Source: a virus
DNA length: 37,439 bases
Strand: one strand, 5' to 3'
Virus record (IMG/VR): IMGVR_UViG_3300042525_000201
Coordinates: 1 to 37,439 of that record
Positions 1,896 through 4,456 of this stretch are shown here, piece by piece. Every line of letters starts with the position of its first letter. Position 1 is the first letter of the stretch. Under the pieces are notes generated by a model. The model worked only from the letters and a program-made list of their open reading frames with translations, was not told the DNA's origin and ran no database searches. A program made the translations under genes and the position numbers.

Positions 1896-2104
1896 TTGAT
1901 CAAAACAACCCAGAGAACTTGCAGGTGGGCTTACTGGTTGCAGCACATACGATCAAAGCACAGAAAGCATTAATCGATGAACTGGTTGAGGCACTGTGGG
2001 GCATGGTTACCAGTTTCCACGCTGTTGAATACATGGAAGAACATATGAAGCAATCATCAGCAAGGGCTAGAGCTGCCATTGAGAAAGCTAGAGGGAAACC
2101 ATGA
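1892..2104 (+). CDS. Small helical early protein (70 aa)
   Basis: The frame is open from 1757, but GTG 1892 is preferred: GGGAG lies 8 bases upstream and it overlaps the preceding stop. The product, MIDQNNPENLQVGLL onward, looks fully helical with a coiled-coil-like middle (KAQKALIDELVEAL) and a basic tail ending in EKARGKP. It overlaps the next gene by ATGA. Function unknown. Confidence 0.7.
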   Translation: MIDQNNPENLQVGLLVAAHTIKAQKALIDELVEALWGMVTSFHAVEYMEEHMKQSSARARAAIEKARGKP

Positions 2105-2289
2105 GTAAGAAGCAATTGAAAGACCTGGAAACTCAGGCAAGCCTGGATCGATGGCAGGAAGAACTAGCAAGGCATGTCGCCTACCTGCCAGTGCTATGTG
2201 AGCTAGCTAATGTTGATGAACATGAACTGCACCGTGCTATTGAGATTCACTTTTACGTTCGCAGTATGAGTAAGGGAGCTATGCAATGA
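2101..2289 (+). CDS. Small helical early protein (62 aa)
   Basis: ATG at 2101 overlaps the previous stop and has GAGGG upstream. The 62-aa product is helical and charged, from MSKKQLKDLETQASLDRW through a hydrophobic middle (YLPVLCELANVDEHEL) to SMSKGAMQ. It overlaps the next gene by ATGA. It is one of a chain of translationally coupled small genes and matches no family I recognise. Confidence 0.7.
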   Translation: MSKKQLKDLETQASLDRWQEELARHVAYLPVLCELANVDEHELHRAIEIHFYVRSMSKGAMQ

Positions 2290-2513
2290 GTGGAAACAAA
2301 TCAGCAAAGACACCATCCGATGGTTCTATGGCGTGGCAGTGCCAATGCGGTAAAGCGTATACGGTTACTTGTATTTCAAGCAAGCCATCAAAACAATGGG
2401 TTAGCTTGACGGATCAGGAAGTGTGGGAAGCGATTGATGATGTGCTTGAAGGCGGTGGTTGGCTTGATGTAGCGAGAGTACTTGAGCAAGCTTTTAAGGA
2501 GAAGAACACATGA
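2286..2513 (+). CDS. Small early protein with LTDQE motif and KEKNT tail (75 aa)
   Basis: Starts MSGNKSAKTPSDG, has a CQCGKAY segment, then WVSLTDQEVWEAIDD and ends EQAFKEKNT. The W-V-x-L-T-D-E/Q-E motif and the KEKNT tail recur in the next gene, so the two share a C-terminal module. The last codons double as the Shine-Dalgarno (AAGGAGAAG encodes KEK) for the downstream gene. Such LTDEE segments are common in small phage early proteins of unknown role. Confidence 0.75.
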   Translation: MSGNKSAKTPSDGSMAWQCQCGKAYTVTCISSKPSKQWVSLTDQEVWEAIDDVLEGGGWLDVARVLEQAFKEKNT

Positions 2514-2514
2514 G
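2496..2514 (+). repeat. 19-bp direct repeat at gene joint, copy 1
   Basis: AAGGAGAAGAACACATGAG here is identical to 3023-3041. It spans the last codons of one gene, the ribosome site and the start codon of the next. Both copies therefore carry the same gene-joint signal. Confidence 0.85.
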
Positions 2515-3040
2515 CCGTGAAGCTATGCAGATGGCGCTAGAAGCGTTGGAACAACTTGATGGCATAGACACCGAAACAGAGTGCGTGACAATTGACGTTG
2601 ACGACGTAATCACCGCCTTGCGCCAAGCATTGGAGATAGATTTAGCAAGGGTTGGTGAGGTTGGTGTATGGGGCCAGTGCGAACCGCAGCCAGCATTAGA
2701 AGACGGTTGGTCAGATTGGGTATGCCCTAAGCCACAGGGTTATCTCATGCAATGCTGTGATTGCGAGCTTATTCATGAAGTTGATTTCAGGGTAGTCAGA
2801 TATGAATCTGAAGATTCAGAAGTTTATGAGGTGGTTGATGACCCTAATCTTCAGGCACAGATGCGGGTGAAAAGACGTGATGACATTTCACCAAAGCATA
2901 CATGGGTTGGGCTGACGGATGAGGAGATACAAGATTTAGGTTATCTGTCCGAAAAGTTTGATGCAAGTAATTCAGAGTGGTTTGATCGATGGGGATTTGC
3001 CCAAGCCATCGAAGCCAAGCTAAAGGAGAAGAACACATGA
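2510..3040 (+). CDS. Phage early protein with two-part architecture (176 aa)
   Basis: The N-terminal part (residues 1-45) is helical: MSREAMQMALEALEQLDG and DVITALRQAL. This type of start is typical of small phage proteins. The middle (about 65-125) contains DWVCPKPQGYLMQCCDCEL and a beta-rich segment ending QMRVKRRDD. The C-terminal part repeats the preceding gene's module, HTWVGLTDEEIQDLG to KLKEKNT. Cysteines at CPKP and QCCDC may bind metal. It appears to be a fusion of modules that circulate separately among phages. Function unknown. Confidence 0.8.
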   Translation: MSREAMQMALEALEQLDGIDTETECVTIDVDDVITALRQALEIDLARVGEVGVWGQCEPQPALEDGWSDWVCPKPQGYLMQCCDCELIHEVDFRVVRYESEDSEVYEVVDDPNLQAQMRVKRRDDISPKHTWVGLTDEEIQDLGYLSEKFDASNSEWFDRWGFAQAIEAKLKEKNT

Positions 3041-3041
3041 G
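3023..3041 (+). repeat. 19-bp direct repeat at gene joint, copy 2
   Basis: Second exact copy of the gene-joint repeat at 2496-2514. It ends the 176-aa gene and starts the 64-aa gene. Confidence 0.85.
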
Positions 3042-3231
3042 TGGAAACCACAACATGAAACTCATTGCTAGCCTGGCACAAGTCAATGACTTTGTGATGG
3101 TGCATGGCAATGAACTGCAAGCAATCCTTGATTACGTTGAAGACATGGAACAGAGGATCAGCATCGTCAGAGAACAGTTGCAGTATTTGGTTGCAGAATC
3201 TGTCGAACCTGATAAGGAATCTGGAGCTTAG
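3037..3231 (+). CDS. Small helical early protein (64 aa)
   Basis: The frame is open from 2989, but the ATG at 3037 overlaps the previous stop and sits behind AAGGAGAAGAACAC. The product starts MSGNHNMK, almost the same as the 75-aa protein encoded at 2286, and then forms a long helix (LQAILDYVEDMEQRISIVREQLQYLV) with an acidic end. The stop at 3229-3231 overlaps the end of the opposite-strand HNH gene. Function unknown. Confidence 0.7.
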   Translation: MSGNHNMKLIASLAQVNDFVMVHGNELQAILDYVEDMEQRISIVREQLQYLVAESVEPDKESGA

Positions 3232-3683
3232 AAAACCTTGATGGAAACGTCACGAAGGTCTAGTTGGATTGGACTTTCGTTTCGTTCCCGCCAGTCAGTC
3301 ATATCCCAATTGCCTTTACCGTAGTTGCAGTCATGGCAAAGCACTTGCAAGTTGTTAAGGTCTAAAGCCAGATGAGGAAATAGTTTTCTTGGCTTTATAT
3401 GATCCACGTTCATCACAGCACCGTGAGCTGGTGTAGCACCGCAGCACTGGCACTTAGCACCATACTTCTTTAATGCTTCCATCCTTACCTTACGCCATTC
3501 ATAAGTCATAAGGAAAGCATCACTTGAAGTATGAATGCCCCTTACCTTTGATTGTTTCCATTCTTCAGAAAGCTGATTTGCAGACTTACCTTGCTTTTGC
3601 CGCAACTTTGCTGCTCTGATCTTATCTCTACGTTTATTCTTTTTATTCTCTAAACGCATTTGATTAATAAGATACTTCATCAT
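3228..3683 (-). CDS. HNH endonuclease (free-standing, leftward in the rightward arm)
   Basis: A 151-aa protein with a very basic N-terminal region (residues 1-35, many Lys and Arg) and a C-terminal HNH/zinc fold. C78-x-x-C81 pairs with C116-x-x-C119. The active-site strand holds VDHIKP (D94, H95), followed by NNLQVLCHDCN with N111 and N120. Such proteins nick or cut DNA and often spread as homing endonucleases. Some encoded near terminases act in packaging, but this one is far from the terminase. It runs against all its neighbours and its stop overlaps the previous gene's stop, as expected of a mobile insertion. GAGGTG lies 4 bases before the ATG at 3683; a second ATG follows at 3680. Confidence 0.9.
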   Translation of the reverse strand: MMKYLINQMRLENKKNKRRDKIRAAKLRQKQGKSANQLSEEWKQSKVRGIHTSSDAFLMTYEWRKVRMEALKKYGAKCQCCGATPAHGAVMNVDHIKPRKLFPHLALDLNNLQVLCHDCNYGKGNWDMTDWRERNESPIQLDLRDVSIKVF

Positions 3684-3963
3684 TTAACACCTCTTGCTCT
3701 CTGGTGGACGGACTTAGCCTTTCCCGCTAAGCCTTCACTGTTTTGCTCTCCGGAGCCACAGACCCGCCAGCCTTTTGAGACACGGATGCTAGCTTCGCCG
3801 TCCGTTTGTGCGCTGTTTCATTCTCTATCCCACCGGTTGCGCTTTTAAGCAAGAGTCGCCGTTGACGCTGGTAAGCCCGCCCAACTCATGCCGAGCTGTC
3901 GTTTCTTGGCTGGGTTCTGAGTCCCACTTGCTTGCAGCTAACTTTGGTCTGCAATCCAGTGTC

Positions 3964-4044
3964 AAAAACAAAAAAGCCACTTACTGCTGCTTCCGGTAGA
4001 AGTCCATCGGGGGTAAGTCGATGGCAGAAGCATGAGTAAGTGGC
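3964..4044 (-). terminator. Long composite hairpin with U-tract on the minus strand (terminator or end of a small RNA)
   Basis: Three nested helices are visible: GCCACTTACT (3976-3985) with AGTAAGTGGC (4035-4044), TGCTTC (3988-3993) with GAAGCA (4027-4032), and CCATCG (4004-4009) with CGATGG (4019-4024). Read leftward, the hairpin is followed at once by TTTTTTGTTTTT (3975-3964), the form of an intrinsic terminator. It is unusually long (69 nt) and internally structured for a plain terminator. An arm at 3996-4004 (GTAGAAGTC) can also pair with GACTTCTAC at 4057-4065, which allows an alternative fold. No leftward gene lies upstream, so the terminated transcript would be non-coding. Confidence 0.65.
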
Positions 4045-4054
4045 CTTCAGATTG

Positions 4055-4084
4055 TTGACTTCTACGACAACAGGCGAATAGTAC
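4055..4084 (+). promoter_or_regulatory. Candidate promoter for the recombination operon
   Basis: TTGACT (4055-4060) and TAGTAC (4079-4084) are separated by 18 bases, matching sigma70 at 5/6 and 4/6. The gene at 4208 lies about 115 bases after the expected start site. The -35 box overlaps one arm of the GTAGAAGTC/GACTTCTAC inverted repeat. Confidence 0.4.
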
Positions 4085-4113
4085 CTAGTGACTATATTGT
4101 TTGGCAAGTTACC

Positions 4114-4126
4114 CGACCAATGGTCG
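4114..4126. promoter_or_regulatory. Palindrome CGACC-AAT-GGTCG, possible operator
   Basis: A perfect 5-bp inverted repeat with a 3-base centre, about 30 bases downstream of the candidate -10 at 4079-4084. Its position in the leader suits a repressor site, but no cognate regulator can be assigned. The two small helix-turn-helix proteins of this arm are candidates. Confidence 0.3.
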
Positions 4127-4207
4127 ATTCTAATGGTATATGCGTATGTTCCTAGTGTTCGCTTTGATGTAATATCCCTACTGTAGTACTTAACCAAGGA
4201 GATAGAA

Positions 4208-4456
4208 ATGAAGTTTTTGAAATTAATCGATTCAGATTTGTATGACATCAGGCTTGCGACAGTCCACATCATTGAAGACAGCGCCAACATCCAGCGCGTA
4301 TTTGCAGGCGACTGGAATTCAATGTCTAGCTACCAGGTCAAGGTCATTGAACGCTTGTTTGATCGCGTTGAAGAACTTAAGCAGATGATAAAAGTCATCA
4401 AGAACCGTGACGTTGTTAAAGACATAAGCACTTGCTTTGATGAGGAGGCAGCATGA
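4208..4456 (+). CDS. Small hypothetical protein heading the recombination operon (82 aa)
   Basis: ATG at 4208 has AAGGAG 9 bases upstream. The 82-aa product begins MKFLKLIDSDLYDIRLATVH and continues with helices, including VIERLFDRVEELKQMIKVIK, then an acidic end (CFDEEAA). It overlaps the next gene by ATGA. No family is recognised. It is first in the operon that carries the exonuclease and annealing protein. Confidence 0.75.
   Translation: MKFLKLIDSDLYDIRLATVHIIEDSANIQRVFAGDWNSMSSYQVKVIERLFDRVEELKQMIKVIKNRDVVKDISTCFDEEAA

What the first reader, a model, noticed from the sequence alone, without database searches (positions are those of the whole stretch)
3684..4207. Structured gene-free region upstream of a reversed HNH endonuclease
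A leftward HNH gene interrupts the rightward operon and is preceded by 524 bases without a gene. The leftward strand carries several hairpins and a 69-nt three-helix hairpin with a U-tract. The combination of an HNH nuclease and an adjacent structured RNA-like stretch recalls mobile elements in which an RNA travels with a nuclease, but no known class (IscB/HEARO, group I or II intron) fits by eye. It could be a new HNH-linked RNA element or simply a crowded control region.
Basis: partly seen in the sequence, partly recalled or inferred. Interest (0 to 1): 0.7.

Follow-up and report, generated by a model that had tools for sequence, protein, structure and literature searches.

The report
Modular phage RNA with passenger nuclease
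In front of a small virus nuclease gene lies a real, folded RNA gene that many related viruses carry, usually without the nuclease; the viruses swap its 3' part like a cassette, and it carries a copy of its own end that suggests, but does not prove, a role in starting DNA copying.

Summary
Window 4107-3684 (minus strand) is a promoter-headed noncoding RNA running straight into the HNH gene (3683-3228). It is not a new HNH-bound RNA. Its core (3891-3762) is a known Rfam family of unknown function, RF02932 'Betaproteobacteria-1' (80 bits). The hairpin with the U-tract is part of a loop-bulge pseudoknot with strong covariation: 22 bulge sequences, 21 matching their own loop, 0/2000 permutations. 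Most copies lack the HNH. All 24 printed intervals from syntenic phages keep the hairpin and U-tract, but the RNA body behind it is one of at least five types (A-E). There HNH occurs only with type A. In the two type-B relatives compared, both flanks match the window and the block 3222-3894 is replaced. New here: a sharply placed covarying direct repeat. Eight to ten nucleotides in an internal loop (X) equal those at the RNA's 3' end (Y), in type A and related type B; no internal complement was found in type A. The best analogue is ColE1 RNA II, whose internal stretch pairs with template DNA, so I favour an R-loop (origin-like) RNA, at about 30%. HNH is most simply a homing-type passenger. HEARO, group I and group II identities failed the tests.

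The parts
4078..4107 (-). Leftward sigma-70-like promoter: TTGCCA (4107-4102), 18 nt, TACTAT (4083-4078)
   Evidence: 9 of 12; 2 sites found versus 0.7 expected, so weak on its own; a TATAAT-like box lies mostly 26-35 nt before the hairpin in relatives
4053..4072 (-). HP1, small 5' hairpin; loop GTAGAAGT (4065-4058) pairs with the bulge of HP2
   Evidence: Own-versus-swapped complementarity 7.4 versus 4.4, 22 bulge types, 0/2000 permutations; coordinates
3970..4045 (-). HP2, three-helix hairpin with 8-nt bulge ACTTCTAC (4003-3996) and U6 tract (3975-3970)
   Evidence: Fold z = -8; same architecture in dozens of relatives
3908..3957 (-). Conserved 5' domain of the RNA body, shared by body types A and B
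3762..3891 (-). RNA core, Rfam RF02932 Betaproteobacteria-1 (body type A)
   Evidence: 80.2 bits, gathering 49.4, E 2e-13; covariation in relatives
3743..3750 (-). X: GAGAGCAA after the conserved GGCUCC of an internal hairpin
3694..3701 (-). Y: GAGAGCAA just after the conserved 3' CCACCA; overlaps the ribosome-binding zone of HNH
3228..3683 (-). HNH endonuclease gene, 151 aa, optional passenger behind the RNA
3222..3894 (-). Block (RNA body 3' part plus HNH) replaced as a unit in HNH-less type-B relatives L390 and L407
   Evidence: Flank matches break at about 3222 and 3894-3899

Best explanation
This is an autonomous phage RNA gene, not an HNH accessory. SHOWN by sequence: a sigma-70-like promoter, a 5' loop-bulge pseudoknot hairpin ending in a U-tract, then an exchangeable structured body (here type A, Rfam RF02932) whose internal loop X repeats its 3' end Y; the HNH gene is an optional gene right behind it. 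INFERRED: (1) the leftward transcript partly reads through the U-tract hairpin, so the pseudoknot acts as a gate (about 50%). (2) X and Y share one partner, most simply the template-strand DNA at Y, so the RNA holds an R-loop at its 3' end, as ColE1 RNA II does; it would be an origin- or primer-type RNA of the phage (about 30%). (3) The HNH is a free-standing homing-type nuclease that travels with the body-A block by cutting alleles of the locus and being copied in by repair (about 45%).
For: Rfam match; covarying loop-bulge pseudoknot; promoter position in the window and relatives; RNA kept without HNH in syntenic and other phages; block exchange; X=Y repeat in type A and B, peaking exactly at the RNA 3' end with no consistent internal complement in type A; AT-rich DNA after Y; position after helicase and primase genes in many type-A loci and in phage AP1. 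ColE1 precedent: PMC4412123 and PMC5043065.
Against: No transcript, hybrid or replication data. AT-rich DNA after Y is also usual at gene starts. Window GC skew shows no switch at the RNA. Stand-alone chromosomal copies are not explained by an origin role. The U-tract hairpin would stop most transcripts before the body. By eye, some type B and C bodies hold a complement of X, which allows a switch instead. No antisense RNA I-like gene was identified.
Confidence: 0.5

Rival explanations
1. Regulatory leader or attenuator: the pseudoknot and U-tract decide how much transcript reaches the body and the downstream gene, and the body tunes translation of that gene (Y lies at its ribosome-binding zone).
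For: Promoter, hairpin, U-tract, RNA, start codon in this order; Y overlaps the HNH ribosome-binding zone in the window.
Against: The downstream gene is unrelated from phage to phage, and many copies have no evident gene directly behind them. A leader would not obviously need an exact copy of Y in a loop.
Confidence: 0.2
2. Trans-acting phage RNA (immunity, anti-defence or host-takeover RNA) whose body is swapped because its target differs among hosts or rival phages; X and Y both bind the same outside RNA or protein.
For: Cassette-like body swapping behind a constant 5' unit; stand-alone copies in bacterial chromosomes.
Against: No target found in the window beyond near-chance matches; type A is conserved over very different hosts.
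Confidence: 0.2
3. RNA-guided HNH element (HEARO or IscB-like in action): the RNA guides the HNH, X being the guide.
For: RNA directly 5' of a nuclease gene, as in HEARO; recurrent HNH linkage with types A and B; X is a loop copy of an adjacent sequence.
Against: Most RNA copies have no HNH and X=Y holds without it. Y lies inside the HNH-bearing block, not at its outer edge. The protein has only an HNH domain. No HEARO match.
Confidence: 0.06
4. Processive antitermination RNA (put-like) at the head of an operon.
For: Promoter, then hairpin and U-tract, then structured RNA; in some phages a terminase small subunit or other operon genes follow on the same strand.
Against: In the window and its syntenic group the transcript runs against the neighbouring operon; type B and C copies mostly face opposing genes.
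Confidence: 0.06

Closest known systems
Rfam RF02932 Betaproteobacteria-1 RNA (function unknown)
   Same: The 130-nt core scores 80 bits over the full model; same helices
   Different: Here it is one body of a longer RNA with a 5' pseudoknot unit, a 5' domain and a 3' end carrying the X=Y repeat, none of which is in the 120-position model
ColE1 RNA II replication primer
   Same: Promoter-driven structured noncoding RNA; a stretch of the RNA matches sequence near its 3' end, so it could pair with the template DNA there
   Different: No sequence relation tested or seen; no proof of primer use; no RNA I found; sits in phages
HEARO / IscB omega RNA elements
   Same: Structured RNA directly 5' of an HNH-bearing nuclease gene
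   Different: No Rfam match, protein lacks RuvC and is 151 aa, RNA mostly occurs without the nuclease
Free-standing phage HNH homing endonucleases
   Same: Small HNH protein, presence/absence polymorphism at one locus, block exchange with the adjacent RNA module
   Different: Target site and cutting untested; its neighbour is an RNA gene rather than an intron or coding target

Membership tests
RF02932 Betaproteobacteria-1 RNA | Covariance-model score above the gathering cut-off | tested here: met
   80.2 versus 49.4 bits, model 1-120
RF02932 Betaproteobacteria-1 RNA | Base pairs kept by covariation in relatives | tested here: met
   One helix pair canonical in 117 of 117 with all four Watson-Crick types
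HEARO / IscB | Match to the RNA family | tested here: not met
   No match at E up to 5 over window 3500-4300
HEARO / IscB | Nuclease with RuvC and HNH domains | tested here: not met
   151 aa, HNH only
Group I / group II intron | Match to an intron RNA family | tested here: not met
   No match
Group I / group II intron | Interrupts a gene that is whole in relatives | tested here: not met
   Lies between two genes; relatives keep an RNA of another type there
ColE1 RNA II-type primer RNA | Promoter-driven noncoding transcript | tested here: inconclusive
   Promoter match in the window and relatives; no transcript data
ColE1 RNA II-type primer RNA | Internal RNA stretch able to pair with template DNA near the 3' end | tested here: met
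   X=Y repeat
ColE1 RNA II-type primer RNA | Persistent RNA-DNA hybrid, RNase H cleavage, primer use | not testable with these tools
   Needs hybrid mapping and replication assays
Free-standing HNH homing endonuclease | Present in some, absent from other alleles of the same locus | tested here: met
   Window, L405, L415/L416 versus L390, L407 and others
Free-standing HNH homing endonuclease | Cuts the HNH-less allele | not testable with these tools
   Needs a cleavage assay

The most novel reading that the evidence does not exclude
A previously undescribed class of phage origin RNAs: a constant pseudoknotted 5' hairpin plus interchangeable, sequence-unrelated bodies that share an internal loop copying the RNA's own 3' end, so that the RNA re-invades its template DNA and starts replication; phages swap bodies and sometimes pick up a homing HNH with them.
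Probability: 0.22. Interest if true: 0.85.

Novelty: new variant of a known kind. Interest (0 to 1): 0.62.

Why it matters
RF02932 is a listed RNA family without a known function. This work extends it on both sides, shows that in phages it is one cassette of a modular RNA locus, finds sister bodies that give no Rfam match (types B-E) at the same locus, and shows an exact coupling between an internal loop and the RNA's own 3' end. That coupling gives a simple experimental handle (swap X, Y or both) on what the RNA does. If it is an R-loop or origin RNA, a large set of environmental phages would start replication by an RNA mechanism best known from ColE1 plasmids.

Tried and rejected
HEARO, group I and II introns: no Rfam match. 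Long minus-strand frame 3886-4290 as a gene: stops in relatives. Folding energy as proof for the whole region: only z -1.6, the signal is in the U-tract hairpin. HNH as obligate partner: rejected by counts. A complement to Y inside type-A RNA: own 5.89 versus cross 5.85. X as guide to an insertion site: Y lies inside the HNH-bearing block. Antitermination leader: orientation not fixed. A repeat or antisense target elsewhere in the window: only short near-chance matches. Named phages: only Acidovorax phage AP1, from one of two RNA queries; plasmids: none for one query. No paper on RF02932 in the library. In an even sample of 150 genomes of the order, 2 had the RNA, one of them the query genome, so it is patchy.

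Full report
OBSERVATION. The HNH gene is window 3228-3683, minus strand, 151 aa, one HNH domain. Upstream there is no credible gene: the long minus frame 3886-4290 has stop codons in most syntenic relatives.

IDENTITY OF THE 3' HALF. Rfam gives one hit in the whole window: RF02932 Betaproteobacteria-1 RNA at 3891-3762, minus strand, 80.2 bits, gathering score 49.4. Around the region nothing else of interest appears at E up to 5, so HEARO and intron families are not supported. In bacterial genomes the family occurs in Paraburkholderia, Caballeronia, Variovorax, Achromobacter and others, 1-4 copies per carrying genome, and it is patchy in the order (2 of 150 sampled, one being the query genome). 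In relatives, one pair of a conserved helix is canonical in 117 of 117 with all four Watson-Crick types, and a pseudoknot that Rfam's printed structure line does not show is supported by swapping tests (0/300). These swapping tests do not correct for relatedness.

IDENTITY OF THE 5' HALF. Relatives of the HNH gene, of the RNA and of a neighbouring gene were collected. In front of the RNA body lies a conserved unit: a sigma-70-like promoter (window 4107-4078; a TATAAT-like box mostly 26-35 nt before the hairpin in relatives), a small hairpin HP1, and a three-helix hairpin HP2 with an 8-nt bulge and a U-tract. The HP1 loop is complementary to the HP2 bulge. Over 43 distinct examples with 22 bulge sequences, own complementarity averages 7.4 against 4.4 for swapped pairs, and no permutation of 2000 reaches the observed sum; 21 of the 22 bulges match their own 5' segment over at least 6 pairs. 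Spurious hits were removed by hand before this test. The unit gave no Rfam match.

MODULAR LOCUS. Phages sharing the neighbouring YqaJ-like recombinase gene keep this locus. All 24 intervals printed carry the hairpin with U-tract, but the body behind it is of several types, sorted here by eye: B in 2, C in 18, D in 2, E in 2; the window, L405 and L415/L416 have type A with HNH. Types C and E look alike at their 5' end, as do A and B. Loci representing types B, C, D and E gave no Rfam match. Hairpin families and bodies recombine: L398 and L406 have the window-type hairpin with body C. Against the two type-B relatives L390 and L407, window matches run on both flanks but break at about 3222 and 3894-3899, so body A plus HNH was exchanged as one block. 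L021 and L025 have the same RNA 3' part and HNH behind different hairpins.

HNH AND RNA ARE SEPARABLE. HNH genes of this family follow types A and B directly in several lineages. But of distinct copies with enough sequence downstream, HNH follows in 15 of 38 (5'-domain pattern) and 3 of 77 (3'-motif pattern; this set contains some chance coding matches). Other copies are followed by unrelated genes, lie after helicase and primase genes (phage AP1; many prophage-like loci), or stand in bacterial chromosomes beside ordinary genes. Conversely, sequence search found the RNA upstream of only 16 or 17 of 80 HNH relatives. The HNH protein itself is ordinary.

A COVARYING DIRECT REPEAT. In type A the 8-10 nt after the conserved GGCUCC of an internal hairpin (X) repeat the 8-10 nt that follow the terminal CACC (Y). 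For 83 distinct RNAs the longest common run is 6.2 nt against 3.8 for swapped pairs, 0 of 500 permutations. Scanning positions shows an excess of 2.8 nt at offset 0, falling to about zero within 8 nt on either side and staying near zero over the rest of the stretch tested. Type B shows the same (17 members, many closely related, 0/1000). In the window both are GAGAGCAA (3750-3743 and 3701-3694). Type-A RNAs hold no consistent contiguous complement. DNA just after Y is AT-rich relative to its contig (+0.14 for A, +0.18 for B), which is also common at gene starts.

MECHANISM. Two segments that must be the same suggest one shared partner. With none found inside type-A RNA, the simplest partner is the template DNA strand at Y. 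ColE1 RNA II is the known precedent: interaction of an rG stretch of the RNA with a dC stretch of the template is essential for its persistent hybrid, which primes replication (PMC4412123, PMC5043065). Placement next to replication genes in many copies agrees, but no origin or hybrid data exist and window GC skew gives no support. I put this at about 30%. Rivals are a leader or attenuator, a trans-acting RNA, antitermination, and an RNA-guided HNH. The last is disfavoured because Y lies inside the HNH-bearing block and most copies have no HNH. By eye, some type-B and C bodies contain a complement to X, so a conformational switch remains possible there.

NOVELTY. The core RNA is known to Rfam. 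Not found in Rfam, or in the papers I could search, are the 5' pseudoknot unit, the exchangeable bodies B-E, the HNH linkage and the X=Y repeat. The held paper library is partial, so earlier descriptions elsewhere cannot be excluded. I rate it a new variant of a known kind, with a real chance of being a new functional class.

Noticed in passing
L390, L407 (type B); L378 and others (C); L391, L396 (D); L393, L404 (E): interval between orthologues of window genes 2989-3231 and 4208-4456: Structured-looking RNA bodies at the same locus with no Rfam match; possibly several new RNA families.
   Followed up: partly
L123 and L087, behind the 5' domain: Two more body types that share the 5' domain but not the type A or B body.
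   Followed up: no
L406, interval 2043-3394: The locus carries body C plus an extra stretch that by eye encodes, on the other strand, a protein like PAPS reductases (not searched), so the site may accept different cargo.
   Followed up: no
L045, L021, L038, L005 HNH genes; L088, L090, L091 downstream frames: Many HNH relatives have an extra N-terminal domain with no Pfam match; short proteins that look like that domain alone follow some type-B RNAs.
   Followed up: partly
L138 and L139: Near-identical type-A RNAs whose X and Y have both changed together.
   Followed up: no
L009, 1793-2211: Three tRNA genes upstream of the HNH relative in this phage contig.
   Followed up: no
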